64,000 nt of DNA. Source: Methyloversatilis sp. (lineage in GTDB: Bacteria > Pseudomonadota > Gammaproteobacteria > Burkholderiales > Rhodocyclaceae). The translations under genes were made by a program, and so were the position numbers. Below the pieces are notes generated by a model. That model worked only from the letters and a program-made list of their open reading frames with translations, was not told where the DNA came from and searched no databases. Positions 13,395-53,686 of the stretch are shown here, piece by piece. Position 1 is the first letter of the stretch; each line of letters opens with the position of its first letter. Where the stretch lies: NCBI GenBank assembly GCA_016791045.1, contig JAEUNO010000036.1, positions 27,620 through 91,619 of the forward strand. Reading direction: 5' to 3'.

Positions 13395-13727
13395 TCAGTC
13401 CGGCCGGGTCAGGTGCACGGCCAGCCAGACCGAGGCGACGTCGGCATCGGTCTGGTCCACACGGTGGCGGCGGTGCGCCAGGATGAAGATCCAGTCGCCC
13501 GGCCGCAGTATCCGTGGCGCGTCCTCGTCGGCAAAACGCAGTGTCGCGGCGCCACTCAGCAAGGCCACCCACTCATCGTCCGGCTGGTCGTACCAGAATC
13601 CGGGCGGGCTGCTCTGGCCGGTCGATACGATGCGCTCGATGCGCACGCCGGGCCGGCCACACAGCGTGTCGATGCGCTCCGCTTGCTGCGTGCCTGCAGG
13701 CAGGCGGTCGAACAGATTGCCGTTCAT
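13395..13727 (-). CDS. Small cupin-domain protein
   Basis: The product from ATG 13727 has 110 residues and reads as a single cupin barrel. Residues in FWYDQPDDEWVALLSGAAT and RPGDWIFILAHRRHRVDQT match the two cupin motifs, and the histidines and acidic residues could bind a metal. The start overlaps the stop of the upstream cupin gene by 4 bases (ATGA), so the two are probably cotranscribed. The frame is open further upstream, but that part shadows the neighbour. The substrate is not known; nothing in the sequence ties it to the arsenic genes except proximity. Confidence 0.75.
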   Translation of the reverse strand: MNGNLFDRLPAGTQQAERIDTLCGRPGVRIERIVSTGQSSPPGFWYDQPDDEWVALLSGAATLRFADEDAPRILRPGDWIFILAHRRHRVDQTDADVASVWLAVHLTRPD

Positions 13728-14095
13728 GGCAGGCTGCCTTCCAGCAGTTCGGTGTCGGCATGCGCGTACGCCGGACTGCAGCAGCACAGGATGACCAGCG
13801 CCCCGGCGCCGGTGGCTTCGATGCAATGCGGTGTGCCGGGCGCAATGAGTACGGTGTCGCCTGCCGCCACGTCGAAACGCGCGTCGCCCAGCGTCATGCA
13901 GCCCTGGCCAGCGGTCACGTGATACAGCTCTTCAGTCACGCCGTGTCGATGCAGCAGGGTGCGCGCACCGGCGGGGATGGTCGCTTCCGCGAGGCTTTGT
14001 GCGCGCCCGCCGTGCAGCGAAGGGTGCATCAGTTCGCGGATCTGCGAGCCGTCCTTGGTGATGTAGGCGTGAATGTCGGAGCGGGCGGTTTTCAT
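13724..14095 (-). CDS. Cupin-domain protein
   Basis: A one-domain cupin of about 123 residues from ATG 14095; an in-frame GTG at 14125 would add ten residues. Metal-binding motif 1 is visible as RTLLHRHGVTEELYHVTAG (His-x-His, Glu), and motif 2 as GDTVLIAPGTPHCIEATG with its His. Such proteins are often small metal-dependent oxygenases, isomerases or sensors; the function here is unknown. It is the first gene of a two-cupin minus-strand unit diverging from arsR, separated by about 160 bases that also hold the arsR operator. Confidence 0.8.
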   Translation of the reverse strand: MKTARSDIHAYITKDGSQIRELMHPSLHGGRAQSLAEATIPAGARTLLHRHGVTEELYHVTAGQGCMTLGDARFDVAAGDTVLIAPGTPHCIEATGAGALVILCCCSPAYAHADTELLEGSLP

Positions 14096-14236
14096 CGGAT
14101 CGTCATCGGTGTCGGGTGCGGTCACGCATCAGCGTGCAGTGTGCCTGCAGGCGGAGCAGGTGGGTACGACCGCGGCGGCACGACCGGCTTCGACCCGACG
14201 CAGCGTCTGCCTGACGCCGGCTTCTTGCTCGATTTG

Positions 14237-14260
14237 ATAATTCAAGTATTATTGAATTAT
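14237..14260 (+). promoter_or_regulatory. Candidate ArsR operator overlapping the arsR start
   Basis: A perfect 9-bp inverted repeat, ATAATTCAA (14237-14245) and TTGAATTAT (14252-14260), is separated by 6 bases. This half-site pattern and spacing is typical of ArsR/SmtB-family operators. It runs into the arsR ATG at 14259, so bound repressor would block either promoter clearance or the very start of the transcript. It is also the most AT-rich spot in the divergent cupin/arsR region. Confidence 0.65.
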
Positions 14261-14585
14261 GGAAGAACAGGATGTCATCCGCTCGCTGTCGGCGCTTGCG
14301 CAGGAAATCCGCCTGCGCGTCTTTCGCGCCCTCGTCGTCGCCGGTCCCGACGGCATGACGCCCGGTGCGCTGGGCGACGCACTGGGTGTCGCGCCGACCA
14401 CGCTGTCCTTCCACCTGAAGGAATTGAGCCGCGCGGGTCTGATCGTGCCGACGCGCGATGGCCGGCATCTGATCTACCGCGCCGACTATGCGCAGATGAA
14501 CGCGCTGCTTGGCTATCTGACCGAAAACTGCTGCCGTGGCGCGTCCTGTGCCGAACCGGCAGCGCCTGTCTGCAAAACCTGTTGA
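14259..14585 (+). CDS. arsR: ArsR-family metalloregulator
   Basis: A 108-residue winged-helix repressor of the ArsR/SmtB family. The helix-turn-helix reads PGALGDALGVAPTTLSFHLK, followed by the wing around VPTRDGRHLIYR. The C-terminus is cysteine-rich: C91, C92 and C97, then C105 and C108. A Cys-Cys-x4-Cys arrangement near the C-terminus resembles the arsenite site described for the Acidithiobacillus ferrooxidans ArsR, rather than the alpha-3 site of the E. coli plasmid protein. No clear Shine-Dalgarno precedes ATG 14259, which sits inside the operator, so leaderless or weak translation is possible. It leads arsI-arsC-acr3. Confidence 0.93.
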   Translation: MEEQDVIRSLSALAQEIRLRVFRALVVAGPDGMTPGALGDALGVAPTTLSFHLKELSRAGLIVPTRDGRHLIYRADYAQMNALLGYLTENCCRGASCAEPAAPVCKTC

Positions 14586-14597
14586 ACGGAGTCCGCC

Positions 14598-15089
14598 ATG
14601 AAGCGCTTTCACGTCCATCTGCACGTCGACAATCTCGATCGCAGCATCGCTTTCTATAACCAGCTCTTTTCCGCGCAACCCGCTCGCCACGAAGCGGACT
14701 ACGCGAAATGGATGCTGGAAGATCCGCCGGTCAACTTCGCGATTTCCACCCGCGGCAGCCAACCCGGGATCGACCATCTCGGCATCCAGACCGACGACCC
14801 GACCGAACTCGCAGCGATGAAGGCGAGCGCCGAGGCAGCCGACATGTCGCTGCTGGACGAAGGGGCCACCAGCTGCTGCTACGCGCGCAGCGAAAAACAC
14901 TGGATCACCGATCCGCAGGGCATTGCGTGGGAACACTTCCATACGCTGGGTGACATTCCGGTGTTCAACGAAGCACCGGCTGTGGTGGCCGCTGAAGCGG
15001 CGGCGGCCTGCTGTGCGCCCAAGGCGCCCGTCACGCGCGGCAAGCCGCTGACCATCGGCGTCAAATCATCCGGTTCGGGCTGTTGCTGA
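14598..15089 (+). CDS. arsI: ArsI/CadI-family protein, probable C-As lyase
   Basis: A 163-residue vicinal-oxygen-chelate dioxygenase. ArsI enzymes use Fe(II) and O2 to break the C-As bond of trivalent organoarsenicals such as methylarsenite. The predicted metal ligands are H5 (RFHVHLHVDNL), H60 (GIDHLGIQ) and E112 (WEHFH), and the vicinal cysteines C93-C94 (TSCCYARSEKHW) correspond to the substrate-binding pair of characterised ArsI. A second Cys-Cys (around 136-137) and a terminal Cys-Cys lie in a 50-residue tail beyond the core domain. It follows arsR by 12 bases and precedes arsC, which supports an arsenic role over cadmium. Confidence 0.88.
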   Translation: MKRFHVHLHVDNLDRSIAFYNQLFSAQPARHEADYAKWMLEDPPVNFAISTRGSQPGIDHLGIQTDDPTELAAMKASAEAADMSLLDEGATSCCYARSEKHWITDPQGIAWEHFHTLGDIPVFNEAPAVVAAEAAAACCAPKAPVTRGKPLTIGVKSSGSGCC

Positions 15090-15090
15090 C

Positions 15091-15582
15091 ATGGGTGCGC
15101 CATTGAACGTGCTGTTTCTATGCACCCACAATTCGGCGCGCAGCATACTGGCCGAATGCCTGCTGAATCATCTGGGTACGGGACGTTTCCGCGCGTTTTC
15201 GGCCGGCAGCCAGCCGTCAGGACGGGTGAATCCGTTTGCGCTCCAGGCGCTGACCGAAGCGGGCGTGGATACGACCGGTGTGCGCAGCAAGAGTTGGGAC
15301 AGCTTCGCCGAATCCGGTGCGCCGCAGATGGACCTCATCATCACGGTGTGCGACAGCGCAGCCGGCGAGCCGTGCCCGGTCTGGCCGGGCCATCCGGCAA
15401 CTGCCCACTGGGGCTATGCCGACCCGTCCTCCGCAACCGGTCCGGACGCAGCAAGACTGATGGCCTTCCGCGACACGATGGCACTGATCCGTCGTCGGCT
15501 CGAAATACTGGTCGCGCTCCCGGCCGAACGCCTGGATGCGCTTCGCCTTGAACACACCGCGCGCAGTCTGGCCGATCGCTGA
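15091..15582 (+). CDS. arsC: Arsenate reductase, low-molecular-weight phosphatase type
   Basis: The 163-residue protein belongs to the LMW tyrosine phosphatase fold used by thioredoxin- or mycothiol-dependent arsenate reductases. The P-loop CTHNSARS places the nucleophile at C11 with Arg at 17. Further cysteines at C87 (LIITVCDSA) and C95 sit where the thioredoxin-coupled enzymes carry their redox pair. It reduces As(V) to As(III), which Acr3 next door would export. The start is the ATG one base after the arsI stop. Confidence 0.92.
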   Translation: MGAPLNVLFLCTHNSARSILAECLLNHLGTGRFRAFSAGSQPSGRVNPFALQALTEAGVDTTGVRSKSWDSFAESGAPQMDLIITVCDSAAGEPCPVWPGHPATAHWGYADPSSATGPDAARLMAFRDTMALIRRRLEILVALPAERLDALRLEHTARSLADR

Positions 15583-15591
15583 GGCCATCCA

Positions 15592-16602
15592 ATGGGACTG
15601 TTCGAACGTTGGCTGAGCGTCTGGGTGGCGGCGTGCATCGCGGCGGGCGTGGGCCTCGGTCTGCTGGCGCCCCGTGCATTCGAGGCGGTTGCGGCGCTGG
15701 AATTCGCCCACGTGAATCTGGTGGTCGCGGTGCTCATCTGGGTGATGATCTACCCGATGATGATCCAGATCGACTTCGCGGCGGTGCGCGACGTCGGGCG
15801 CCGGCCGCAGGGTCTGGTGCTCACGCTGGTCATCAACTGGCTGGTCAAGCCCTTCACGATGGCGGCGCTCGGCGTGCTGTTCTTCCGCTATCTGTATGCG
15901 CCCTGGGTCGATCCGCAATCGGCCACCGAATACATCGCCGGCATGATCCTGCTCGGCGTCGCGCCCTGTACGGCAATGGTGTTCGTATGGAGCCAGCTGA
16001 CGAAAGGGGACCCCGCCTACACGCTGGTGCAGGTATCGGTGAATGATCTGGTCATGGTGGTCGCGTTCGCGCCCATTGCGGCCTTCCTGCTCGGTGTGAC
16101 CGATGTGGCGGTGCCCTGGGAAACGCTGCTGCTGTCGACGCTGCTGTATGTGGTGCTGCCGCTGGTCGCCGGCGTGCTGACGCGGCGCGTGCTGCGCGAC
16201 GGCGCTGCGCTGGCGCGTTTCGTGGTGCGACTGAAACCGGCGTCAATCGTCGGTCTGCTGGCCACGGTCGTGCTTCTTTTCGGTTTCCAGGCGGAGACGA
16301 TCTGGGCACAACCGCTGGTGATCGGTCTGATCGCGATTCCGCTGATCATCCAGACCTACGGCATCTTCGCCATTGCCTTCATTGCAGCGCGTCGCATGAA
16401 TTTATCGTATGGCGTGGCGGCGCCTGCCTGCCTGATCGGCACCTCGAATTTCTTCGAACTGGCGGTTGCAGTGGCGATTTCGCTGTTCGGCCTGCACTCC
16501 GGCGCTGCACTGGCCACGGTGGTGGGCGTGCTGGTCGAAGTTCCGGTCATGCTGTCGCTGGTGGCGTTCACCAACCGGAACAGACACTGCTTCCCGAGTT
16601 GA
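15592..16602 (+). CDS. acr3: Acr3-family arsenite efflux permease
   Basis: Acr3 (often annotated arsB) is an inner-membrane arsenite/proton antiporter of about ten spans. The 336-residue protein is strongly hydrophobic, with the conserved Cys of the fourth span ([11 protein letters not shown]) and the conserved Glu of the ninth or tenth span ([11 protein letters not shown]), the two residues considered essential in this family. It lies 9 bases after arsC and ends the arsenic operon. Confidence 0.93.
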
Positions 16603-20510: not shown

Positions 20511-21194
20511 TCATTGCCCGAAGTCGCCGGCTGCGTCTGGTCGCGCCGCCCACGGCACCAGTCCGGCGGCCGTCGCCAGACGCACCAGTTCGACATCGCT
20601 GCGCACGTCGAGCTTCTGGCGGATTTCGCTCATGCGGTTCGATATCGTCTTAGGGCTGAGCTTGAGTGCGTCGGCGATCTCGTCGACCGACATGCCGGCC
20701 AGCAGCAGGCGGCAGATCTCGAATTCGCGTGGAGTCAGCACGTCAAGCCGCTTTTCGTCCGGCATGACATTGTCCAGCGCCAGCTGCTCGGCCACGCGCG
20801 GGCTGAGCGTGCGTCGCCCCTGCGCCGCGGCGAGCACGGCCTGCACCAGCGCTTCGGGTTCGGTGTCCTTGGTCAGGAAGCCGATCGCGCCGGCTTCCAG
20901 TGCCTGGCGCGCAAACGCAGGCTGCGCATGCATCGAGAACATCAGCACGCGGGCGCGGTTGTCCAGCGCCAGCATGCGGCGCGTCGCTTCGATGCCGCTG
21001 GCACCGGGCAGCGAAATGTCCATCACCACCACGTCCGGCTTGAGCATGCGGAACAGCTGATAGGCCTCGTCCGAGGTACCGGCTTCGCCGACCACCTCCA
21101 TGGCGCGGTTGTGTTCGAGAAAGCGACGGTAGCCGGCGCGCACGACGGCATGGTCGTCGACGAGCAGAACGCGGATCGGGCTGTGAAGACTCAT
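20511..21194 (-). CDS. NarL/FixJ-family response regulator
   Basis: A 227-residue two-domain regulator: a receiver domain (acidic pair D13-D14, phospho-acceptor D59 in VVVMDISLPG, Lys in FLTKD) and a LuxR-type helix-turn-helix (LTPREFEICRLLLAGMSVDEIADALKLS, split across two helices). It overlaps the histidine kinase gene upstream by 4 bases, so they form a pair. It is the last gene on this minus-strand run. The target genes are unknown. Confidence 0.93.
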   Translation of the reverse strand: MSLHSPIRVLLVDDHAVVRAGYRRFLEHNRAMEVVGEAGTSDEAYQLFRMLKPDVVVMDISLPGASGIEATRRMLALDNRARVLMFSMHAQPAFARQALEAGAIGFLTKDTEPEALVQAVLAAAQGRRTLSPRVAEQLALDNVMPDEKRLDVLTPREFEICRLLLAGMSVDEIADALKLSPKTISNRMSEIRQKLDVRSDVELVRLATAAGLVPWAARPDAAGDFGQ

Positions 21195-22546
21195 GTTTTT
21201 TCCTGTAGCGAAGTTTTCAGCGGCAACCAGGCATCGACCTGCCAGCCACCTTCGGGGCGCGGGCCGGCGCGGCAGTCACCGCCCAGCGCCAGTGCGCGTT
21301 CGCGCATGCCGACCAGACCGAAGCCACTTTCGGGTGTGGCATGCGGTCGCGGTTCGCCATCGTCACGCACGCGCAGCGACACCCGACCGGCGGCAGGATC
21401 GATGTCGAGCAGGATGTCGATGCGGGTGCAGCGCGCGTGCTTGACGGTATTGGTCATGCACTCCTGCACGATGCGGTACAGCGTGATGTCGTGCATCGCC
21501 GACAACTGGCCCAGATCCTCGTGCAGATCGAAATTCACCTGGGCCGAATCGGCGCAGCGGCTGCGCTGCTTGCCCAGTTCGCGCAACGCATGCCCCAGAC
21601 CCAGCTCTTCGATGTCGGGCGGGCGGAGGTGTTCGAGCAGGTTGCGCACCAGACGCAGCATGTGGCCGACCTGTTCCGACATCCAGCGTGCCGATTCGCG
21701 ATGCTCCGCCAGTTCCGGCCGGCCTTCGCAGGCGTCCGCCAGCAGCCGTGCATGCGGGTGGATCGCCACCAGATACGGACTCAGCTCGTCGTGCAGGTCG
21801 CGCGCCAGCGCATGGCGGATCTCCTCCTCGTGCGTGATCAGCTTGCGCAGCAGCCGCGCGCGTTCGTCGACCGCCGCTTCAAGGGTGGATGCCATGCTGT
21901 TGAACGATTCCGACAGCGGTGCCAGATCGCCCGGCCCGACGTTTTCCAGCCGCGCGTCGAGCCGTCCTTCGCCGATCGCCGACAGCGCACGCATCACGCT
22001 GCCCAGCGGATGCAGCGCCCGTCCGACCGCCCAGAACACCATCAGGCAGGCGATCAGCCCGATCGCGGCGACCATCGATGTCTGCTTGACGTAGTCGTCC
22101 CAGATCTCGCGCAGTTCGTCGTCGGCATTGGGCACCAGCAGGTAGTAGCCGATGACCTGCCGGCCCACCAGGATGTCCTTGCGCAGCGGCGAGCGGCTGC
22201 GCAGCCGCTCACCCATCCAGCCCAGCGCAAAGGGCGCCGATTGCTGCGGGCCGCTGCGCGAGCTCAAGATCAGCTGACCGCTGGCCGCCCGCACTTCCAC
22301 CGTCAGGTGGCGCAGGCTCCTCAGTTCGCGCGTGAGCTGGATGCTGGCGAGCAGGGCTTCTGCGCTGACGCCGACCGGCGGCGGCGACAGCGCGCTGGGC
22401 AGCAGCGCGTGCGCCAGCCGGGCCACCGATTCCATCTCGGCGACGGCGTCATCGTGGGCGTCGTACAGCCTGCGCACGCTGTCGGCAACGACCAGCAGGG
22501 TCATCAGCGACGCAATGATGAGGGTGAGTCTGATGCGCAGACTCAT
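21191..22546 (-). CDS. HisKA_3-type sensor histidine kinase
   Basis: A 451-residue membrane kinase with spans near residues 7-22 and 156-175 bracketing a periplasmic sensor of about 130 residues. A HAMP domain follows (around 176-230), then the HisKA_3 dimerisation box with the phospho-acceptor H252 (LARDLHDELSPYLV) and an HATPase domain with an N-box (ECMTNTVKHA) and a G-box (GFGLVGMRERALALGG). This kinase class partners NarL-type regulators, which agrees with the next gene. It starts 102 bases after the SLOG-like gene, so cotranscription with the TIR/CHAT locus is possible but unproven. Confidence 0.93.
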   Translation of the reverse strand: MSLRIRLTLIIASLMTLLVVADSVRRLYDAHDDAVAEMESVARLAHALLPSALSPPPVGVSAEALLASIQLTRELRSLRHLTVEVRAASGQLILSSRSGPQQSAPFALGWMGERLRSRSPLRKDILVGRQVIGYYLLVPNADDELREIWDDYVKQTSMVAAIGLIACLMVFWAVGRALHPLGSVMRALSAIGEGRLDARLENVGPGDLAPLSESFNSMASTLEAAVDERARLLRKLITHEEEIRHALARDLHDELSPYLVAIHPHARLLADACEGRPELAEHRESARWMSEQVGHMLRLVRNLLEHLRPPDIEELGLGHALRELGKQRSRCADSAQVNFDLHEDLGQLSAMHDITLYRIVQECMTNTVKHARCTRIDILLDIDPAAGRVSLRVRDDGEPRPHATPESGFGLVGMRERALALGGDCRAGPRPEGGWQVDAWLPLKTSLQEKT

Positions 22547-22648: not shown

Positions 22649-23212
22649 TCAGGCGAGCAGACGCGTGTCGATGTGCTCGATCAGGCCGCCGTGCGCGCCG
22701 ACCTCGGCCACCATGTGAGCCGTACCGCCCGGACCCTCCGGACCGTCGCCATTCCACAGGCAGACGAAGCACAGCGCGCCGCCGGCATGCGCGAACGCTT
22801 CGTCGACCAGCCACCGATTGCAGGCTTCGTAGGGATCGCGGCCGTCGGCCAGCGGACCCAGCGCTGTCGGCATGTCCAGCACCGTTGCGCCGGGTGCCGA
22901 AAGCGCCCGGCGATAGCGTTCGACCCAGCGTTCGCCGTGCAGAGACGGTCTGACCGAGGTCTGCTCGAAGGTGGCGATGTCGAAGGGCAGCAGGATGTGG
23001 CGTCTCACCCCGCGTTCGAGGCACGCCTCCAGGAACAGCAGGTCACCGCCCGACGCGGCCTGACTGAACGCGATGTCGCCGGCACCTGCGCCGTGCCGAT
23101 CGAGTGCGGCGGCGATCGCCGCCGCCGCCGCAGGCTCCATTGCCGGCGGAAAGCGCGGCGTGGCGCGGTCGGGACGGTCCATCAGGTGACCGCTGAACAG
23201 GAAAGTCGTCAT
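22649..23212 (-). CDS. Small SLOG-like Rossmann protein of the TIR/CHAT locus
   Basis: A 187-residue single-domain protein. It opens with a beta strand and glycine turn (TFLFSGHL), has a GG-D motif in QAASGGDLLFLEACLERG near residue 55, a strand HILLPF, and a C-terminal WNGDGPEGPGGTAHMV. That pattern resembles the SLOG (Smf/DprA-LOG) nucleotide-binding fold found in TIR- and CHAT-linked proteins; this is my reading of motifs and not a database result. There is no signal peptide or membrane span. It lies 40 bases downstream of the M15 peptidase gene and closes the set. If the fold is right, it could sense a nucleotide made by the TIR protein. Confidence 0.6.
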   Translation of the reverse strand: MTTFLFSGHLMDRPDRATPRFPPAMEPAAAAAIAAALDRHGAGAGDIAFSQAASGGDLLFLEACLERGVRRHILLPFDIATFEQTSVRPSLHGERWVERYRRALSAPGATVLDMPTALGPLADGRDPYEACNRWLVDEAFAHAGGALCFVCLWNGDGPEGPGGTAHMVAEVGAHGGLIEHIDTRLLA

Positions 23213-23252
23213 GGCACGCAGTGCAGCAGCAAAGCAGGTTCGATCCGCCGCA

Positions 23253-23828
23253 TCATGCCGTATCGCTGGTCAGTCCCGGTACGTAACGATAGGCGCCGGA
23301 GCGCGGATCACGCACGTAGCTCAACAGTTGCCGACGGTTCGGTGCGCCGCCCGGGGGGCGGAGCGACACGTGCACCCAACCCGAATTCGGGCCCTTGGCC
23401 GGGTCGTAGCACTCGCAGATGATCTGGTCGAATACCTTGACGTGCGCCGCCACCCACTCAGCGAGCGCGATCGTGGCGACACCGACGATTTCGATGTCGC
23501 ATGCCTCACCGCGCGCATGCTGGCTGCTGCTGACCCAGCTCGACGGCTTGCGCTTCAGGGCGCGTTCTAGGGCCTGGCTGCGGAACACGCTGTTCGGCGA
23601 GAAGCTGCCGAACTTCGTGCGCACCGGCTCGAGCACCTCGCGCGCCAGATGTACTGCGGCGCGCAGCTCGGCATCCGACGGAAAGGCGTTCGGAATGCCC
23701 TGGCGCGATGCAATGTCGGAGCGGGTCAGTTCGTACAGCCGGAAGTGCGGCGACACCTTGTCCCGCGGCTGGCAGCCGGCGATGTGCAGCGCGCCGAGCG
23801 CCACCTTTGCCAGATCGCGGTCGCTCAT
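23253..23828 (-). CDS. M15-type zinc peptidase (D,D-carboxypeptidase-like)
   Basis: A 191-residue protein resembling the peptidase M15A C-terminal domain, common in phage endolysins and cell-wall carboxypeptidases. The expected zinc ligands are H104 and D111 (SSQHARGEACDIEI) and H153 (SGWVHVSL). The N-terminal HFRLYELTRSD and VLEPVRTKFG segments also match the family. No signal peptide is visible, so it should be cytoplasmic unless another factor exports it. Its ATG overlaps the stop of the giant CHAT gene by 4 bases, showing tight linkage. The substrate is unknown. Confidence 0.78.
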   Translation of the reverse strand: MSDRDLAKVALGALHIAGCQPRDKVSPHFRLYELTRSDIASRQGIPNAFPSDAELRAAVHLAREVLEPVRTKFGSFSPNSVFRSQALERALKRKPSSWVSSSQHARGEACDIEIVGVATIALAEWVAAHVKVFDQIICECYDPAKGPNSGWVHVSLRPPGGAPNRRQLLSYVRDPRSGAYRYVPGLTSDTA

Positions 23829-26800
23829 GGCAGCTCCCGGAAGCGGTTGCGCATGCTGACCAGCGCCGAAATCACCGGCTTCAGTCCGCCGTCTTCACGG
23901 CTCGATGGCGCAGCATCTCCGGCATCGAGCAGTGCGACCATGAAATCGAAGTTTTCGGTGATCGATGCGCGCTCCCGAGGGCTGGCGCCGCGGCGAAATG
24001 CGTTCAGGTATTCGTTCAGCACGCGGTCGAATCTTTCATCGATGACGTCGTTGCGGACTGGCGCGCGCTTCGCCGGCTTGCGGGCCGGCGCGCGAGAACG
24101 TTTGCCGGCGGGTTTGTCGGGCGGCGCCGGCAGCGCTTCGGTGATCATCGCCAGCAGCCGGCAATTGGCGATGCCGGTCGCCAGCCACAGGCCGGGCTCG
24201 TCGCAATATTCGGCCTCGCACGCGACGCGGATGCGTTCCGCCTCGCTGAGCAACGTGTCACGTGCCCACAGCGGTGTGTAGTCCGGATCGCCCGCCGTGG
24301 CGAACAGGTCGGCCAGTGCGCTGTTGACGAACGGGTAGGCGCTGCTGTGGCCCTCCATTTCGAACGCGTCGCGATAGTAGGTGGCCATGTTGACCAGTGA
24401 CTCCTGGCGCTCCTGCCCGGTGGTCACCAGCGCAAGCCGCTTGCATGCGGCACCCATCATGTTCAGGCGCTCCGGTGTGCGGGCGCGCTGGATCAGCAGA
24501 TCCAGCTCCATGATGGCCGCGATGATCGAGGTGCGCAGCGCTTCGCGCAGGGCTTCGTCCGGCGCGCCGCCGGCGAGCGAGTCCAGCCAGCGTCGTCCCG
24601 CCAGGCGAACGCGGAAATTGGCGCACTGTTCGACCACCCGGATCGGGCAATCGCCCTTGCTGGCCGACAGCGCAGCGTCGAGATGTTCGATCGCCCGTGC
24701 GTAGTCACCGATCTCGCCCCACAGGAAGCCGAGCGCGGCGCGCACATCGGCGCGGGCCAGCCACCTTTCGCGGCTGGCGTCGGGCACGCGGTCGAACAGT
24801 GCGTCGACGCTGCCCTGCAGCCACCTGCCGTCGGTTGCGGACGACTGCATGCGCACCGACTCGCGCATGTTGTCGAGATGGCTGACCAGCTCGGCATGCG
24901 AGTGCAGCGGTCCGGCCGGCCGGGCGGTCGAGCGCGCGCCGTCACCCTGTGCGCGCAGCAGGCGGAAGCCCGGATCACCGTAGCACTGGTAGGCGCCGAA
25001 TGTATTCGACTGCGGATGCTGCTGCACGCAGGCGCGTCGCGCCGCCCGCACGGACTCGCCGAAGGTGTCGCCGGCCAGCATGCGCTGATAGAACGTGGCG
25101 GCAAAGGTCTTGGCCGCATCGTCATCGACCGCCCAGCCGGCGGCCACCACCGCCTTCACGCCCATGCGGATGAACTGCACCCCCAGATTGGCAGCCAGCG
25201 CGGGGAAGGCCTGCTTGTCCTGCGAGCGTGTCTTGCCGAGGTGACAGCAGTTGATGAACACCAGTTCGGGTACATAGCGCATCTGTTCGACATCGCCCGG
25301 CGTGAGCAGCACGCCGTGGCCGATCACCATCCCCGACAGCGGCTTGTCACCCGCCGACGTCGGTGCGCCGTGGTGGCCCTCGACCCGATAGTCGTGTTCG
25401 CCGTGACCGGCCAGATGCAGGATGCGCCAGCGGCGACGGTGCAGGCTTTCGAGAATGTCGGTATGGGTCGCGTCGATGCACGCATCGGTCTGGTAACCCA
25501 GTTCGGTCAGGCATTCGGCAACGTGCTGCGCTTCGTCGCGCGCGCCCGGCAGGTCGATGAACTTGTCCCAGCCTTCCAGATCCGGGTGGCCGATGACCAG
25601 TGCCGACAGTTCGGTGCCGTGCACCGGCTGCGCCCGGAATTCCGGCGTCCTGAGGGCGCGCAGCAGGCCGCTGCGGGCGGCCGGCGGCAGCGGATTGGTC
25701 GCCCAGCGGTCTTCCAGCAACTCCCATGGATAGGCGGCCGATTTTTCGTCGAGCACCAGCAGCAGGTTGTGATTTTCCGGTGCCAGCTCCTTGAGCCGGT
25801 TGGGCAGCAGCATGTCGAACAGCGTGCGCGCCGCTTCGCGATTGCGACCGGGTTGCGTGCACGCGCGTTCGATGAACCTGGCGGCCAGCGACAACTGGCC
25901 CAGGCCGATGGTTTCCTCGGCACGCGCACGGTTGGTCGATGACACGAAGCGCAACCGCGTGTCTTCCGGGTCGGTGCATATTTCCAGCCGGTGCCACCAG
26001 TCGCCGTCGCTGTCGAAGCTGACCCGGCGGCGCCCGCCGTCGCCCGCGTGCACGGTCTGCTCCGGCCAGCGCACGTCGGCGCCGAAATCGACCGATGCCA
26101 GCACGTCATCCAGCGCGTCGGCGGCATTGATGGTCACGTCCTGGAACAGTTCGATCAGTTGCAGTTTCGACAGGTAGATGCGGTCCCCCAGACCTGCGTC
26201 GATCAGCCGGCGATTGGTGTTCACGACCGCGCGCAGCAGCGCCTCGATCGAATCGCGCAAGGTCATGCCGCCGGCACCGCTGCCGATCAATACCGTGCTC
26301 AGCCCCATCGAACGCATGTCGGCGGCGCGGATCGGACGTTTTCCCTCCGGCATCTGCACCAGTTCGAAACAGTAGGTCAGCAGTGCGTCCGACACCGTGG
26401 ATTCGAGCCGTCCGGGCGACAAGGTGCCCAGTTCGCCCAGGCCGACCACGATGGCTGCGACCGGACGCGCCTCGGGCGTGTCGTTGTAGAACAGGGCGCT
26501 GCTGCCGATCTGCCCTGGATACAGGCCCAGATCCATGCGTTGCGTCAGCGGCCCGACCTGCTCGCCGGGACGAGTCAGCTGCTTGTCGAGCGCGCGTTCG
26601 GCGCTGACGATGCTGTCGCCCAGATAGTGGCCCACCATCAGCGGATGCTTCACGTAGCTCAGGTCGCCATGGGTGAGCTGCACCTCGAGTCCGGGCAGTG
26701 CAGGCGCTTCGGTGGGCTGCGGACTGCCCGGACCGAAGCCCAGACGCTCGACCTCGGCCGCCGTCGGGATGGCATCGAGCACGGGGGACGATGTGCCGTG

Positions 26801-29470
26801 CACGCCGCCTGCGACCGCCGCACGCGCACCGCGCGCCGTGCCCACGCTGCGCGGCAGCCGCGTGGTCAAGCCCTTGAGCAGCAGATCGGTATAGCCGGCG
26901 AAGGTCTTGCGGCCGAAGTCGTAAGAACACAGCGCGTCGTGCGCGGTGTCCTCGGCGAAATACATCGGCACGCCGGGCAGTCGGCCGGACGCCCAGGTGA
27001 CCGTGCCGTCGCCTTCCGGTGTGTGCGGAAAAACCAGCTTGCGACGGTTGAAGCGGAAGGCGCCGTCGTCGTCGATCAGCTCGTGGCCGCACACGGTTTC
27101 GGGCTGCACGCCGGCGACATAGATCATGTGCTGCGCATCGACCGCGCCGGCCAGCGCGTCCCAGGTGCGTCGCGCACCGCGCAGCACGCCCGCATCGGCC
27201 AGTTTCCAGCGCTCGCCCAGGCCGTCGCGCAGGCCGGCCCACAGTGCAGGATCGTCGTAACGCGGCGTCGATCCGTCGGCAGGGAAGGGCAGCAGTTCGA
27301 CCAGCCCGGGGTAGCGCCGGACGATGTCGATGATGCCGTCGCGGCTGTTCAACAGATCGAGCAGCATCAGCTTGAACTGCGTCGGGTTGCGTCCGGTCAG
27401 CCAGCGCACCGCTTCGTGCGAGCCATGATTGGGCGTGCCCAGCATCAGCAGGCGGCTGTTCGGCAGCTCGCAGACGCGCCGCCACACTTCCGCGCCCTTG
27501 CGGTCGGCGATCATGGCGCGCACCACGAGACCGCCCATCGAATGCGCCACGATGTGCAGCGCCTGCTTCTGCGCCTGCAGGTCAGGCAGCCACAGCGTGA
27601 GCTGTTCGGCCAGCTGCGCCGCCGCCACCTGCACCGAATTGCGCCAGTCATAGGCGAAGAACTCGACCCGGTGGGTCTGCGCCAGATGCATCAGCAATGG
27701 CGCGTAGAAACTGTCGACCAGACCATCGACCTCGATCTGCGCCGCATCAATGCCGATCTTTTCCAGTCCGCCGAACGCCAGCGATTTGTAGTCCAGCCAC
27801 ACGCGATCGCCATCGGCCTTCAGCGAACTGCCCATCGTGCCGGGCAGCACGACGGCCAGCGGTTTCGGCAGCCCGCCGGCGCGGCTGCGCGCAATCGCGC
27901 TGCGCCAGGCCGGTGGCGTCGGCGGCCGCTCGCTGATCGGGCGAAAGCCCGCGTCGGAGCCGTCGGCGCGGGTCAGACCCTGCAGCAGCCAGTCGACCGA
28001 GCGGGCATTGTGGAAGTAGCTGAAGTGATCGACCGCGTCGCCCTTGTCCATCTGCTGCCGGGCACCGTGTTCCGGGCGCGTGATGCCGCCGAACATCGAT
28101 CCGGTATTCACCACAAGATCGTGTTCGCCCTTGTAGAACCAGTCGGTCACGAACACCTTCAGCGCCGAAAGGATGGAGTGGCCACGTTCGATGTCGCCGG
28201 CGATCACCGTCAGATCCGACTCGGTGCGGGTCTCCGGATGGTTCAGCAGGCGCACGACGGCCGAGCCGGGCATCATCGCTTCCAGGCCGGGCAGCACGCG
28301 CGGGTCGGTGCGCTCGCGCAGCACGGCCGCCATGAAGTCGAGCGCCTCGGGTGCCAGCGGCACATGCTGCAGACCGGCGATGCGGCTGGCGTTGAGCAGC
28401 AGCGAAAACCAGCGGTCCAGCCGGCCGGAGGCGAGCGTGGTACCCATGGCCGGGCAGGCGACGCGCACGAAGCGCGTGATCCGGAACTGCTTCGCATCGA
28501 GTACTTCGGCCAGCTTCAGCAGCGCGTCCCGATCGGCGGCGTAGTCTTCCTTCAGCCGCTTTTCGCCGGCTTCGTCCAGCGGTTCGATGTTCAGCTGCTG
28601 CGCGATCGACACGTCGCCGACGAACAGCCGCTTCAGCACCTCGGCGCGCAACGGGTCGCTGCTGCGCAGTCGTTGCCCCAGACACAGCAACTCGCCGACC
28701 AGGCCACCGCGCGAGTGGCTGACCAGATGCAGCGTGGCGCCCTGCGGCATCGATTCGGCCAGTTCGAGCGCGTTCTGGATCGGACTGACGGTGAGTGTGC
28801 GGTGTTCGAAGGCATAAATGCCTTCGCCATAGATACCCGCCAGTCGCGCGCAGGCGGCGTTGCCGCGCGGGTTGTCGTCCGCCGCCAGCTTGCCGAAACT
28901 GCCGTCGAAGCTCGATGCCGTGCCATGCAGGAACACCAGCAGCGGCGTGTCGTCCGTCGCCTGGACCTGGTCGATCTTCGCGCCGAGCGCTGCGTTCTCG
29001 ATATCGCAGCGATACAGACCCGGCTCGCGCCCGAGGATTTTCCGCTCGAAGCGCGTCGCGAGCCGGCGGGCGACGAATTCCTGCGCCTTGTCCTTCAGGT
29101 CGATGCCGAAGAATTCGATCACCCGGGTCGCCAGACCGAGCGCACTGCCCAGTCCGCGGCTGCCCGGGGTGTGTGCGTTCAGGTCGCCGATGTCCCACAA
29201 CACCTCGCCATCGCTGCGCGTTTCGGCCTTCGAACCCGCCTCCTGCATCAGGTCGTCGGCGCGTATCCAGAGCTCGAAGCCGTTGTCGAGCGTGACCCGG
29301 GCAATCGCATCAGCCGGTATGACGGCCGGTTCGGCCGCTGCGGCGGCACGACTCCCGCCGGGTTGCACCGAGCCCAGCGGTGTGAACGTGACTTCCGACC
29401 CGGATGGTGTGCTGATCGGCGCACCCTTGCGCGCGCGAATGCTGAAACGCTCGTATTTCGACTGTTTCAT
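23825..29470 (-). CDS. Giant protein: two alpha/beta hydrolases plus CHAT protease
   Basis: The start is ATG 29470 with an AGGAGG about 6 bases upstream, giving 1,881 residues; the frame stays open to 29575 but without a good start. Domains in order: a lipase-like alpha/beta hydrolase (about 170-500) with nucleophile S253 in LVSHSRGGLV; a second, LCAT/PGAP1-like hydrolase (about 535-870) with S644 in IVAHSMGGLVVRAM; an unrecognised middle region (about 900-1220); a CHAT caspase-like domain (about 1235-1505) with His1356 in ILHLAGHGEHD and Cys1409 in ELVFINCCHLG; and a helical, TPR-like C-terminus with a basic linker near 1785-1805. No signal peptide or membrane span. It lies between the TIR gene (52-bp gap) and the M15 peptidase (4-bp overlap). 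It combines potential lipid and protein cleavage in one chain; the substrate and trigger are unknown. Confidence 0.85.
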   Translation of the reverse strand: MKQSKYERFSIRARKGAPISTPSGSEVTFTPLGSVQPGGSRAAAAAEPAVIPADAIARVTLDNGFELWIRADDLMQEAGSKAETRSDGEVLWDIGDLNAHTPGSRGLGSALGLATRVIEFFGIDLKDKAQEFVARRLATRFERKILGREPGLYRCDIENAALGAKIDQVQATDDTPLLVFLHGTASSFDGSFGKLAADDNPRGNAACARLAGIYGEGIYAFEHRTLTVSPIQNALELAESMPQGATLHLVSHSRGGLVGELLCLGQRLRSSDPLRAEVLKRLFVGDVSIAQQLNIEPLDEAGEKRLKEDYAADRDALLKLAEVLDAKQFRITRFVRVACPAMGTTLASGRLDRWFSLLLNASRIAGLQHVPLAPEALDFMAAVLRERTDPRVLPGLEAMMPGSAVVRLLNHPETRTESDLTVIAGDIERGHSILSALKVFVTDWFYKGEHDLVVNTGSMFGGITRPEHGARQQMDKGDAVDHFSYFHNARSVDWLLQGLTRADGSDAGFRPISERPPTPPAWRSAIARSRAGGLPKPLAVVLPGTMGSSLKADGDRVWLDYKSLAFGGLEKIGIDAAQIEVDGLVDSFYAPLLMHLAQTHRVEFFAYDWRNSVQVAAAQLAEQLTLWLPDLQAQKQALHIVAHSMGGLVVRAMIADRKGAEVWRRVCELPNSRLLMLGTPNHGSHEAVRWLTGRNPTQFKLMLLDLLNSRDGIIDIVRRYPGLVELLPFPADGSTPRYDDPALWAGLRDGLGERWKLADAGVLRGARRTWDALAGAVDAQHMIYVAGVQPETVCGHELIDDDGAFRFNRRKLVFPHTPEGDGTVTWASGRLPGVPMYFAEDTAHDALCSYDFGRKTFAGYTDLLLKGLTTRLPRSVGTARGARAAVAGGVHGTSSPVLDAIPTAAEVERLGFGPGSPQPTEAPALPGLEVQLTHGDLSYVKHPLMVGHYLGDSIVSAERALDKQLTRPGEQVGPLTQRMDLGLYPGQIGSSALFYNDTPEARPVAAIVVGLGELGTLSPGRLESTVSDALLTYCFELVQMPEGKRPIRAADMRSMGLSTVLIGSGAGGMTLRDSIEALLRAVVNTNRRLIDAGLGDRIYLSKLQLIELFQDVTINAADALDDVLASVDFGADVRWPEQTVHAGDGGRRRVSFDSDGDWWHRLEICTDPEDTRLRFVSSTNRARAEETIGLGQLSLAARFIERACTQPGRNREAARTLFDMLLPNRLKELAPENHNLLLVLDEKSAAYPWELLEDRWATNPLPPAARSGLLRALRTPEFRAQPVHGTELSALVIGHPDLEGWDKFIDLPGARDEAQHVAECLTELGYQTDACIDATHTDILESLHRRRWRILHLAGHGEHDYRVEGHHGAPTSAGDKPLSGMVIGHGVLLTPGDVEQMRYVPELVFINCCHLGKTRSQDKQAFPALAANLGVQFIRMGVKAVVAAGWAVDDDAAKTFAATFYQRMLAGDTFGESVRAARRACVQQHPQSNTFGAYQCYGDPGFRLLRAQGDGARSTARPAGPLHSHAELVSHLDNMRESVRMQSSATDGRWLQGSVDALFDRVPDASRERWLARADVRAALGFLWGEIGDYARAIEHLDAALSASKGDCPIRVVEQCANFRVRLAGRRWLDSLAGGAPDEALREALRTSIIAAIMELDLLIQRARTPERLNMMGAACKRLALVTTGQERQESLVNMATYYRDAFEMEGHSSAYPFVNSALADLFATAGDPDYTPLWARDTLLSEAERIRVACEAEYCDEPGLWLATGIANCRLLAMITEALPAPPDKPAGKRSRAPARKPAKRAPVRNDVIDERFDRVLNEYLNAFRRGASPRERASITENFDFMVALLDAGDAAPSSREDGGLKPVISALVSMRNRFRELP

Positions 29471-29522
29471 GCCCTGACCTCCTGCTGTTGTTCTTGTGTC
29501 GCGCGCTGCCGTCGCCAGGCGC

Positions 29523-30710
29523 TCAGTTCGCGGCCGCCCCGGATGATCGGGACAGGGTGACGACCGACGTTTCACCGCTGTTGTAGCGCAGCGTGCCGGT
29601 CATCGTGCTGCTGTTGGCGACGCGCAGGCTGAGGCTGCCGGTGTTGATCATCACGTTGCCGTTGGCAAAGATGTTCAGCGCGAAATTCACGTCGCGCTCG
29701 TACGCCTCGCCCGCACCTTCGAAATGGATGTCGTTCACGCCCTGGCCGTAGGTCTGGATCAGCACGGCGTTGTACACCTGCCACACCGGGTGCTGCGTGA
29801 CGTTGATGCGCGGGCTGCGCAACGTCAGGTCGTTGCCCTGTCGGGTCAGCGTCAGCGGAATGCGCTCGCCCTGTGCATCGACCATGGTCCAGTTGCCGGT
29901 CAGGTCGCGCTCGGGTTCCGGTGCGGGTGCGGCGGGGACTGGGGTAGGGGTGGGCAGGCTGGCGACCGCAACCGGCGCGACGGGTGCCGGAGCCGGGTCA
30001 TCGGCGACGAACGGCGCCGGCGCCGGGGCGGGTTCGGGCGTGGTCTCCTGCTCGCCGACGAATACCGCGACGATGAGGATGAAGGTGAAGAAAATCCCGA
30101 CTCCCCAGACCACCTTGCGCGCGGCACCGATGACGCGGCCGACCGGCTTCTTCAAGCTGTCCGGGAGCGGCAGATCGTCGTCGCCGGTGGTACTCCGGTG
30201 CGAGGTGGACTGGGTCGTGCTGTCCGTCGCCGCACTGCGCATCGGCATGCCGGGCAGCTTCTCAAGCACGCCGCACAACTCGCCGAAGTCATACTGCCAG
30301 CGTTTGTCGGTCATTTCGTGCGCATTGCGCCGGCCGAGCGCCGACAGCTCTTCCGGCAGTTCGGCTGCGTCGGGCATGACGGCACCGCCAACCAGCACGG
30401 GAATGACGCGCACGCCGCGCCGGGTCAGTGCGCGGGCAATCTCCATGCGTACCGGGTCATTCGGATTGTCGAGCCGGCGCTTGCCCTGGGCGTCGGTCAT
30501 CGACAGCCAGTGCGGACCGACCAGCACGAGCACGACATTGCACCGGTCGAGCTCGCGCTCGATGGCGTCGACGAAGTCCTCACCGGCCGCGATGCTTTCG
30601 AGGTCGCGGAAAACCTCCATGCCCGGGAACGCCTGCAGCAGATCCTCATGCAGCGTCTGTGCGTAGCCGCTGCTGTCCTTGCGTCGATACGAGATGAAAA
30701 GGCGTGCCAT
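29523..30710 (-). CDS. Membrane-anchored TIR-domain protein
   Basis: A 395-residue protein. Residues 1-150 form a TIR domain (ARLFISYRRKDS, then EVFRDLESIAAGEDF, then VVLVLVGPHW); E90 in PVRMEIARAL is in the position of the catalytic Glu of NAD-consuming TIRs. One membrane span follows at about 200-218, then a Pro/Ala-rich linker to about 270, and a beta-rich C-terminal domain of about 120 residues (DLTGNWTMVDAQGER onward). The likely topology is cytoplasmic TIR and periplasmic C-terminus. It leads the CHAT gene and may act as the sensor or trigger of the set. Whether it hydrolyses NAD is not shown by sequence alone. Confidence 0.85.
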   Translation of the reverse strand: MARLFISYRRKDSSGYAQTLHEDLLQAFPGMEVFRDLESIAAGEDFVDAIERELDRCNVVLVLVGPHWLSMTDAQGKRRLDNPNDPVRMEIARALTRRGVRVIPVLVGGAVMPDAAELPEELSALGRRNAHEMTDKRWQYDFGELCGVLEKLPGMPMRSAATDSTTQSTSHRSTTGDDDLPLPDSLKKPVGRVIGAARKVVWGVGIFFTFILIVAVFVGEQETTPEPAPAPAPFVADDPAPAPVAPVAVASLPTPTPVPAAPAPEPERDLTGNWTMVDAQGERIPLTLTRQGNDLTLRSPRINVTQHPVWQVYNAVLIQTYGQGVNDIHFEGAGEAYERDVNFALNIFANGNVMINTGSLSLRVANSSTMTGTLRYNSGETSVVTLSRSSGAAAN

Positions 30711-30721
30711 GCGTTATGGCC

Positions 30722-30850
30722 TCAGTGCGCGATGCAGGGGATGAAGGCCATGCGGCACACCCTCACGGTGTCAGCATCCGCGCAACTGCCTGGCGCCGTG
30801 CCATTGACGGAACGGTACTTGATGCCGATGCGCGAGGCGACGCTGCTCAT
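30722..30850 (-). CDS. Candidate 42-residue small protein at the head of the TIR/CHAT genes
   Basis: An ATG at 30850 with GGAG six bases upstream opens a 42-codon frame ending 11 bases before the TIR start. Third codon positions are about 88% G or C, like the real genes around it, which supports coding. The peptide starts MSSVASRIGIKYRSVN and ends CRMAFIPCIAH, with three cysteines and no membrane span. I do not recognise it. It could be a small regulator, a leader peptide or a protease substrate; those are guesses. Confidence 0.5.
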   Translation of the reverse strand: MSSVASRIGIKYRSVNGTAPGSCADADTVRVCRMAFIPCIAH

Positions 30851-52751: not shown

Positions 52752-52992
52752 GATCCTGAAAACCTCATTTGACTGCTCACCAGGTTATTGAATTGAAAAT
52801 CTTCGCCAGCGACACTGTCGTCGCATTCCGGAGCATCACCCCGCAGATGAGCGCGCTTCGCCACCGCGTGCACGGCTGGCGGGGCGCCCGGCCGCGTTGC
52901 GCGTCCCTGCCGTACGCATCGCCAACCATGCCCATGACACCGATCAATCGAGGTCTTCAGGTGATTTGTCGACGTTCATCTTCGGCAGGGCT

Positions 52993-53682: not shown

Positions 53683-53686
53683 TGCG

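What the first reader, a model, noticed from the sequence alone, without database searches (positions are those of the whole stretch)
22649..30850. Unnamed five-gene TIR / double-hydrolase-CHAT / M15 / SLOG-like locus
One strand carries, in order, a 42-codon ORF, a membrane-anchored TIR protein, a giant two-hydrolase-plus-CHAT protein, an M15-type peptidase and a SLOG-like protein. The CHAT and M15 genes overlap and other gaps are 11-52 bases. TIR enzymes that make NAD-derived signals, SLOG receptors of such signals (as in Thoeris) and CHAT proteases are each known in antiviral or cell-death systems, but I know no described system with this combination. A model in which the TIR senses an envelope event, makes a nucleotide, and the SLOG-like protein relays it to the hydrolase/CHAT effector is inference.
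Basis: partly seen in the sequence, partly recalled or inferred. Interest (0 to 1): 0.87.

Follow-up and report, generated by a model that had tools for sequence, protein, structure and literature searches.

The report
Predicted TIR-triggered bacterial self-lysis cassette
An environmental bacterium carries a gene set that looks like a self-destruct switch: an alarm enzyme, standing where relatives have a caspase-like one, sits beside a giant fat- and protein-cutting enzyme and a virus-like wall-dissolving enzyme.

Summary
In detail: coordinates, order, gaps, domains and the named residues. The interpretation needs changing.
(1) The unit is not five genes. Homologues show a modular cassette around the giant protein (two alpha/beta hydrolases, M17_N/macro-like region, CHAT, TPR-S), in the near clade often with a metacaspase in front and a phage-type peptidoglycan hydrolase behind. 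The M15 gene is an endolysin relative (PHROG 894).
(2) In Methyloversatilis a membrane TIR stands where the metacaspase stands elsewhere; the "42-codon ORF" is most likely a decaying metacaspase start (dN/dS near 1).
(3) TIR-CHAT pairing apparently arose more than once; these TIRs share a C-terminal domain found only in CHAT-linked TIRs or their orthologues.
(4) The SLOG-like gene is not linked in six sister species; the downstream kinase pair is not part of the unit.
(5) All 13 genomes of the genus have one giant CHAT gene of this family; the seven without one behind the second TIR each have another.
Best model: TIR-made NAD-derived signal, TPR-S/CHAT activation, membrane attack, endolysin access, lysis. 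Mechanism and any antiphage role are inference. New variant of known TIR/caspase, TPR-S and gasdermin-endolysin logic.

The parts
30722..30850 (-). 42-codon ORF: most likely a relic of the N-terminus of a metacaspase (CASP) gene, not a working gene
   Evidence: Against a metacaspase N-terminal matrix, orthologous ORFs of four sister genomes fill the five top places of 5,451 ATG starts (L273 and L099 are one contig) and the window's own is ninth; dN/dS 0.88-1.44 in 9 of 10 pairs, 0.42 in one
29523..30710 (-). TIR (1-140) - TM (200-218) - Pro-rich linker - C-terminal domain; predicted NAD-consuming signal enzyme with an extracytoplasmic sensor (topology inferred)
   Evidence: PF13676; SARM1 TIR phmmer match E 6e-5; E90 43/43; TM; C-terminal domain in 2 of 300 order genomes, own and CHAT-linked G049
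23825..29470 (-). Giant effector: alpha/beta hydrolase 1 (S253/D451/H482), LCAT/PLA2G15-like hydrolase 2 (S644/D821/H844), M17_N macro-like region (~930-1130), CHAT protease (H1356/C1409), TPR-S (1589-1718)
   Evidence: triads inferred from conservation
23253..23828 (-). M15_3 peptidase of phage-endolysin type, no signal peptide or TM seen
   Evidence: PF08291; PHROG 894 lysis/endolysin E 2.9e-25; zinc-ligand motif in 30 of 31 rows, one gap; hydropathy
22649..23212 (-). SLOG-like (YAcAr-related) stand-alone domain; elsewhere often the C-terminus of ~660 aa proteins with TPR-S; accessory (inference)
   Evidence: not in the ~18 kb around site 2 in six sister species
20511..22546 (-). Histidine kinase and NarL-type response regulator: neighbours, not part of the cassette
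   Evidence: Kinase orthologues in all 13 genus genomes; kinase and regulator found without the cassette in the six such sites fetched

Best explanation
A TIR-controlled, membrane-linked cell-death cassette that works like a phage holin-endolysin pair. Inferred steps: (a) the extracytoplasmic C-terminal domain of the TIR protein reports an envelope event; (b) its cytoplasmic TIR domain cleaves NAD+ and makes an ADP-ribose-type signal; (c) the giant protein binds the signal through TPR-S and/or its M17_N macro-like region, so no SLOG relay is needed; (d) CHAT proteolysis and the two lipase-like hydrolases attack proteins and the inner membrane, and CHAT may activate the hydrolases or the M15 enzyme by cleavage; (e) the cytoplasmic endolysin-type M15 enzyme reaches the peptidoglycan and the cell lyses. 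The SLOG-like protein is an accessory nucleotide-binding modulator. In many relatives a metacaspase takes the position of the TIR. Shown here: gene content, conserved active sites, recurrent linkage, different front genes before the same effector, relic-like ORF, purifying selection. Not shown: any activity, signal, trigger or phenotype.
For: Catalytic residues of both hydrolases and CHAT are near-invariant in 97 rows. The giant-protein profile matches group XV phospholipase A2 and LCAT structures over hydrolase 2, E 7e-7 to 3e-5. TPR-S and CHAT are present; M17_N hits 38 of 58 middle regions at E up to 1, best 1.9e-8. In 85 loci (CHAT <=90% identical, window included) the metacaspase is at -1 in 31, M15 at +1 in 20 and a VanY-type M15_4 at +1 (either strand) in 4. 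Beside other CHAT genes stand Amidase_2 (L065, L142), GH108 (L061) and CHAP (L272) enzymes, which match PHROG lysis families, as does the window's M15. The +4 control genes show no peptidoglycan hydrolase among the 25 of 90 families listed. TIR_2 hits 5 of 57 non-M15 +1 neighbours. TIR-CHAT stands at two sites in 12 of 13 genus genomes. The TIR C-terminal domain was found only in CHAT-linked TIRs or TIR2 orthologues.
Against: No activity or phenotype is known. TIR at -1 was seen in only 3 of 85 loci, all in Methyloversatilis (window, L099, L110), so the TIR-in-front form is a genus feature; elsewhere TIRs lie at +1. Of the 84 non-window loci, the 46 with <42% identity to the window CHAT have M15 at +1 in none and the metacaspase at -1 in 7, so the cassette form belongs to one large clade. 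Of the four VanY genes at +1, three are on the opposite strand, as is the CHAP gene, 663 bases away. The 381-aa protein that replaces M15 at site 2 could not be assigned: no Pfam match, hhalign probability 6 to M15. The two hydrolases could act on other esters. TIR2 is kept under purifying selection without a linked CHAT in the five such genomes tested, so it may have another job. Macro-like is a fold inference; no structure could be predicted.
Confidence: 0.5

Rival explanations
1. Type IV Thoeris-like antiphage system: the TIR makes a cyclic ADP-ribose isomer that activates CHAT as a caspase-like protease which degrades host proteins. The hydrolases and M15 are auxiliary and lysis is not the aim.
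For: Type IV Thoeris pairs a TIR with a caspase-like protease activated by N7-cADPR (PMC12847820, passages). TIR-metacaspase gene pairs occur in the order: adjacent in G224 (L187/L227) and G254 (L188/L228), near each other in G026 (L207). CHAT is a caspase-fold protease with C1409 97/97.
Against: Known-system models match the TIR domain only in part (PADLOC ThsB 67 residues; NCBIfam ThcB4 45.8 bits against a cut-off of 220) and none matches the giant protein. The genus has the gene in 13 of 13 genomes, unlike the patchy spread I recall for antiphage systems. The recurrent endolysins are left unexplained. No scan of the flanks for defence genes was made; by eye they look like housekeeping genes.
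Confidence: 0.25
2. Envelope stress or maintenance system: lipases, protease and M15 remodel lipid and wall under stress; no cell death.
For: Present as one copy in 13 of 13 genomes of the genus, in two recurrent chromosomal places between genes that look like housekeeping genes by eye. TIR has a predicted TM and outside domain.
Against: M15 and CHAT protein show no export signal. The family is patchy outside the genus: 20 of 300 order genomes, own included, have a CHAT match over 400 bits (my count). Partners (caspase, TIR, TPR-S) are conflict-system domains.
Confidence: 0.13
3. Producer-cell lysis module used to release contractile injection particles or other cytoplasmic goods; the Methyloversatilis version is a relative without such cargo.
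For: Six CASP-CHAT-M15 loci (L054, L085, L089, L094, L098, L113) sit divergently beside full-length tail sheath, Pvc16-like and ~330-aa genes (named by Pfam in L054, by sequence cluster in the rest); three more have partial or variant sheaths. Such particles are released by suicidal lysis of the producer (PMC10598620, passages).
Against: No sheath gene in the window's genome. Most loci have no sheath neighbour: 7 of 85 have one within five genes.
Confidence: 0.08
4. Chance juxtaposition of unrelated genes.
For: TIR-domain, SLOG and M15 relatives also occur without CHAT; no SLOG-like gene near site 2.
Against: 4-base overlap, same order in six genus genomes, recurrence of TIR-CHAT and CHAT-M15 in other loci, TIR C-terminal domain found only in CHAT-linked TIRs and TIR2 orthologues.
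Confidence: 0.03

Closest known systems
Type IV Thoeris (TIR plus caspase-like protease, N7-cADPR; Rousset et al. 2025, seen only through passages of PMC12847820)
   Same: TIR enzyme beside a caspase-fold protease; NAD-derived signal plausible
   Different: Protease here is CHAT inside a 1,881-aa protein with two lipase-like hydrolases, macro-like region and TPR-S; endolysin partner; TIR is membrane-anchored with an outside domain; product unknown
TPR-S-centred conflict systems (Burroughs and Aravind 2020, J Bacteriol; recalled, paper not held; Pfam TPR-S PF20308)
   Same: TPR-S in the effector; proteins with TPR-S plus SLOG-like, and TPR-S plus patatin, occur in related loci
   Different: I do not recall, and could not check, that this TIR/metacaspase - double hydrolase-CHAT-TPR-S - endolysin arrangement is described there
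Bacterial gasdermin operons with caspase/CHAT proteases and nearby lysozymes or amidases (PMC9612521, passages)
   Same: Protease plus membrane attack plus endolysin-like enzyme; holin-endolysin mimicry proposed there
   Different: No gasdermin found by sequence; the membrane-attack part here would be lipase-like hydrolases fused to the protease
Caspase with alpha/beta-hydrolase pairing in VMAP ternary systems (PMC7159879, passages)
   Same: Caspase-type protease and alpha/beta hydrolase as a functional pair
   Different: Here fused in one protein; no VMAP, vWA or MoxR match among the cassette proteins
Phage M15 endolysins (PHROG 894)
   Same: M15_3 fold and zinc motif; phage relatives, best listed 42% identical
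   Different: Chromosomal, overlapping the CHAT gene by 4 bases, no holin or spanin recognised among the cassette proteins

Membership tests
Thoeris | TIR enzyme with catalytic glutamate | tested here: met
   E90 conserved in 43 of 43 distinct TIR matches that cover it; PF13676; that E90 is the catalytic one is inference
Thoeris | Type I receptor: SLOG fused to SIR2 (ThsA) | tested here: not met
   SLOG-like gene is stand-alone, no SIR2 match in locus proteins
Thoeris | Type II receptor: TM-macro effector | tested here: not met
   Macro-like M17_N lies inside the CHAT protein, which has no TM segment by hydropathy
Thoeris | Type IV: caspase-like protease activated by a TIR-made N7-cADPR | tested here: inconclusive
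   CHAT H1356/C1409 97/97; no model of the type IV effector was compared and the signal is not testable here
Thoeris | TIR passes curated Thoeris model cut-off | tested here: not met
   NCBIfam ThcB4 45.8 bits, cut-off 220
TPR-S conflict systems | TPR-S domain in the effector | tested here: met
   PF20308 E 3.4e-12; 14 of 17 rows of A1, one of which was a wrong-strand row
TPR-S conflict systems | Linked NAD/nucleotide-signal domain (TIR, DRHyd, SLOG) | tested here: met
   TIR upstream, SLOG-like downstream
TPR-S conflict systems | TPR-S binds an NAD-derived signal | not testable with these tools
   Prediction in the literature (recalled)
Gasdermin-protease systems | Gasdermin pore former | tested here: not met
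   No gasdermin family among sequence-profile matches of the locus proteins; folds were not compared
Gasdermin-protease systems | Neighbouring caspase/CHAT protease and endolysin-like enzyme | tested here: met
   CHAT, M15 endolysin PHROG 894
Type III-E CRISPR Craspase (TPR-CHAT) | Cas7-11 and CRISPR partner | tested here: not met
   Among the six proteins scanned, only the response regulator hit Cas-associated models, by its receiver/HTH parts; the rest of the window was not scanned for cas genes
Phage M15 endolysin family | M15 zinc motif SxHxxGxAxD...WxH and no export signal | tested here: met
   Motif in 30 of 31 rows, one gap; N-terminal hydropathy 1.19 or lower in 29 of 30 neighbours, 1.75 in one

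The most novel reading that the evidence does not exclude
A host-encoded holin-endolysin analogue in which a single giant lipase-protease takes the holin's place, a phage-type endolysin finishes the wall, and the trigger enzyme is an exchangeable plug (caspase or TIR). Two TIR lineages plugged into it separately, one leaving a caspase fossil. Each Methyloversatilis species keeps one effector copy, and the same cassette beside contractile-injection operons is their missing lysis module.
Probability: 0.27. Interest if true: 0.88.

Novelty: new variant of a known kind. Interest (0 to 1): 0.74.

Why it matters
If true, it links TIR signalling, caspase-type proteolysis, lipase attack and phage-type wall lysis in one bacterial death cassette. 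It gives a natural experiment in which one upstream enzyme class (caspase) was replaced by another (TIR) in front of the same effector family. That makes a long-standing question, how TIR and caspase modules became interchangeable in cell death, testable in an environmental genus. It also gives a candidate for the lysis step of some contractile injection systems.

Tried and rejected
SLOG as an essential relay: not supported; no SLOG-like gene in the ~18 kb around the site-2 loci (those genomes were not searched whole for it). Histidine kinase pair as part of the unit: rejected; kinase orthologues in all 13 genomes, and in the six cassette-free sites fetched the pair stands without the cassette. 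The HDAC gene is next to it in five of the six, with no ORF, two small ORFs or one 456-aa gene between; G306 is rearranged (G302 not fetched there). 42-codon ORF as a functional peptide: rejected. 381-aa site-2 protein as an M15 relative: suspected by eye, not supported. Viral carriage: a pattern scan of viral contigs confirmed no CHAT relative. Plasmid carriage: residues 1-1225 of the giant protein match 12 of 72,556 records; two looked at, one beside restriction-modification and Fic genes, one not.

Errors of mine: one of the 17 rows of A1 (L067) was taken on the wrong strand; it entered, the pattern choice, the PDB profile, and the tallies. It was corrected for the 97-row alignment. Some gene calls are on the wrong strand (L218, L220, L224, L225, L226, judged by eye); for L225, L226 and for the TIR loci L197-L199 tblastn was used. 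Several loci are the same contig in two collections (L110=L270, L057=L124, L058=L133, L099=L273; by coordinates L073=G307, L074=G309, L075=G308), so raw counts are not independent; one search gives counts at <=90% identity. My neighbour cluster 'SLOG' is single-linkage and also holds DRHyd-like/TPR-S proteins without the SLOG part, so its count is an upper bound. Rows dropped: one search left out 10 near-duplicate or fragment loci; of its 59 listed +1 neighbours 56 went into A4 (L062 = CASP, L065 = TIR, L144 = 5-kb gap left out) plus L272; of 67 controls 62 went into A5. Tree: 40 of 102 rows, chosen by me.

Full report
Observation. The five ORFs are on the minus strand at the stated places: 42-codon ORF 30850-30722, TIR 30710-29523, giant protein 29470-23825, M15 23828-23253, SLOG-like 23212-22649. 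Gaps are 11, 52, -4 and 40 bases. The window lies in a genome of 3.54 Mb in 47 contigs; its nearest named loci are Methyloversatilis (L073-L075, 93-95% identical), so I take it as that genus. It sits between a histone-deacetylase-like gene and a histidine kinase/response regulator pair.

The giant protein. Pfam finds DUF7379, an LCAT-like hydrolase, CHAT and TPR-S. Among 97 rows (window plus 96 loci, near-duplicates included) these residues are conserved: S253, D451 and H482 97/97; S644 93/97, D821 and H844 97/97; CHAT H1356 and C1409 97/97. That D451/H482 and D821/H844 complete the triads is inference from position and conservation. The second hydrolase matches group XV phospholipase A2 and LCAT structures (E 7e-7 to 3e-5). 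The region between hydrolase 2 and CHAT matches Peptidase_M17_N in 38 of 58 homologues at E up to 1 (best 1.9e-8; not in the window protein itself) and an aminopeptidase N-terminus in the PDB (E 0.0017). That this domain has a macro-like fold is recalled, not from a call. No TM segment shows by hydropathy.

The M15 protein. It is an endolysin relative: PHROG 894 (lysis) E 2.9e-25, with 92 phage records matching, all under 60% identity. The zinc motif is kept in 30 of 31 rows, the other being a gap. It has no evident signal peptide or TM segment.

Neighbourhoods. From 20 order regions and 80 named loci (the scan reported 531 relatives and kept the best 80), neighbours were called with my own gene caller. 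At <=90% CHAT identity 85 loci remain, window included: metacaspase (PF00656 in L054; the rest by sequence cluster) at -1 in 31, TIR at -1 in 3 (all Methyloversatilis), M15 at +1 in 20, VanY-type M15_4 at +1 in 4; 80 loci had an upstream and 80 a downstream gene. A cluster of SLOG-like and DRHyd-like/TPR-S proteins lies within five genes in 25 loci besides the window. The cassette form belongs to the near clade: with >=42% identity to the window CHAT, 19 of 38 have M15 at +1 and 24 of 38 the metacaspase at -1; below that, 0 of 46 and 7 of 46. Other wall hydrolases stand beside CHAT: Amidase_2 (L065 at -1, L142 at +1), GH108 (L061), CHAP (L272, opposite strand). They match PHROG lysis families. 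Of 57 non-M15 +1 neighbours, TIR_2 hits 5 and M15_4 hits 4 (25 of 77 families listed); 62 control genes at +4 show no wall hydrolase among the 25 of 90 families listed.

The genus as a natural experiment. All 13 genomes have one giant CHAT gene of this family; G303 has a further weak match at E 2e-4 in another protein and G310's gene is matched in two pieces. Six (G000, G303, G304, G307, G308, G309) have the window-type CHAT beside the kinase, with TIR-CHAT-M15-SLOG in order in all six (window; L280 = G303; L273 = G304; L073-L075, which by coordinates are G307, G309 and G308). Six (G300, G301, G302, G305, G306, G311) have TIR-CHAT-381aa downstream of a gltX-like gene, with a 47-48% identical CHAT and no SLOG-like gene in the ~18 kb fetched (gltX and flhA are my labels from the sequences). 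G310 has metacaspase-CHAT with a CHAP enzyme downstream on the other strand. The second-site TIR (TIR2) exists in all 13. In G304 it is followed directly by the 381-aa gene with no CHAT between. In G000, G303, G307, G308 and G309 it stands between the gltX-like gene and flhA without CHAT or the 381-aa gene; in G310 no CHAT follows within 1.5 kb. So the seven genomes without CHAT at TIR2 each have another CHAT, and the six with it have no other. Loss is the simplest reading (the G304 remnant), but direction is inferred, and shared ancestry makes this perhaps two events, not seven. TIR2 without CHAT is under purifying selection in the five genomes tested (dN/dS 0.12-0.27).

TIR in place of a caspase. 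The two TIR-CHAT clades are separate in a tree of 40 of 102 CHAT rows (both 100 SH-aLRT); holding them together is disfavoured (AU p 0.023; the group was named after seeing a first tree). The TIR/CASP label needs two changes; direction is not given by the tree. The only Pfam caspase match in the window's genome is inside the CHAT gene. At site 1 the 42-codon ORF resembles the metacaspase N-terminus (typical MAKKALCIGINNYPGT; sister ORFs MSNVAxCIGINDGPVTG). In a scan of 5,451 ATG starts from the window and 11 loci the sister ORFs fill the top five places (four genomes; L273 and L099 are one contig) and the window's is ninth. Its dN/dS is 0.88-1.44 in 9 of 10 pairs, 0.42 in one, against 0.055-0.12 for the real genes against G303. 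I read it as a fossil of a metacaspase gene that TIR replaced; no such fossil was seen at site 2.

What ties TIR to CHAT. The C-terminal, predicted extracytoplasmic domain of the TIR was found in 2 of 300 order genomes and the same 2 of 274 class genomes: in the window's genome (both TIRs) and in G049, where the TIR gene overlaps a CHAT gene (L065). It is also in the site-2 TIRs of six sister genomes. The nearest TIR-domain relatives (54-59% identical) gave no match to it; the G049 match is weak (E 3e-5), so more distant copies may be missed. TIR-metacaspase neighbours (adjacent in G224 and G254, ~0.7 kb apart in G026) and TIR beside SLOG or DRHyd-like/TPR-S/SLOG proteins (G016, G039, G144, G212, G272) show that these parts share a wider network. 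DRHyd is my name for the N-terminal part by resemblance; Pfam shows TPR-S there but no DRHyd model.

SLOG-like and M15 elsewhere. The SLOG-like protein has no Pfam match of its own; PF10686 (a SLOG family) hits 3 of 20 relatives. In many relatives the domain is the C-terminus of a ~660 aa protein with TPR-S. The M15 search matched 24 of 300 genomes, five strongly (own included): three beside CHAT; one (G170) two genes away, on the other strand, from genes that resemble DRHyd-like/TPR-S and TPR-S-patatin proteins by eye; one at a contig end.

Literature. Searches listed no paper that I recognised as describing this combination; subscription papers are mostly missing and I read passages only. 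Passages: caspase always with alpha/beta hydrolase in VMAP systems (PMC7159879); TIR, DRHyd and SLOG as one Rossmannoid class (PMC9503650); bacterial death domains (PMC8195603, nothing on this locus); gasdermin operons with lysozymes or amidases and CHAT/C14 proteases (PMC9612521); type IV Thoeris (PMC12847820); caspase homologues in defence (PMC12799240); injection particles released by suicidal lysis (PMC10598620). The TPR-S paper (J Bacteriol 2020) is recalled only.

Mechanism and verdict. The anatomy fits a triggered lysis cassette: membrane TIR, signal-sensing lipase-protease, cytoplasmic endolysin. Every functional step is inferred. Antiphage use is possible but untested; the one-copy presence in all 13 genus genomes argues for caution, and no search for a surrounding defence island was made.

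Noticed in passing
L054:1577-5579, and upstream of CHAT in L085, L089, L094, L098, L113: Divergent contractile-injection genes (tail sheath, Pvc16_N, T4 gp19-like tube by Pfam in L054; same clusters in the others, the tube gene seen in four of the six) lie beside metacaspase-CHAT-M15 loci; a possible producer-lysis module.
   Followed up: partly
L290 (G304), L214 (G000 contig 4), L292-L297: TIR2 with CHAT and the 381-aa gene in six genomes, with the 381-aa gene alone in one, and without CHAT in the other six; TIR2 is under purifying selection in the five CHAT-less cases tested.
   Followed up: yes
L054:13380-14939 and cluster C4, within five genes in 16 of 85 loci: A ~518 aa membrane-like protein with no Pfam match often follows M15; its C-terminus looks like a TIR/DRHyd-type domain by eye only.
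   Followed up: partly
L266:11909-13054, L119:11615-12760: 381-aa protein in the M15 position with a strongly conserved FETSGDP...QVTGNFDGAGLSFGPLQ stretch in 5 of 5; L266's matches only PHROG 30036 of unknown function.
   Followed up: partly
L180 (G170): An M15 relative of the same family lies near genes that resemble DRHyd-like/TPR-S and TPR-S-patatin proteins; no CHAT match was listed for this genome, so the endolysin may travel with other lipase effectors.
   Followed up: partly
window 13395-16602 and 51294-54295: An arsenic-resistance-like cluster and an ImuA/ImuB/LexA-like mutagenesis cassette, by eye from the translations; ordinary.
   Followed up: no
L281 (Azotobacter chroococcum plasmid): A CHAT homologue beside restriction-modification, Fic and transposase genes on a mobilizable plasmid.
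   Followed up: no
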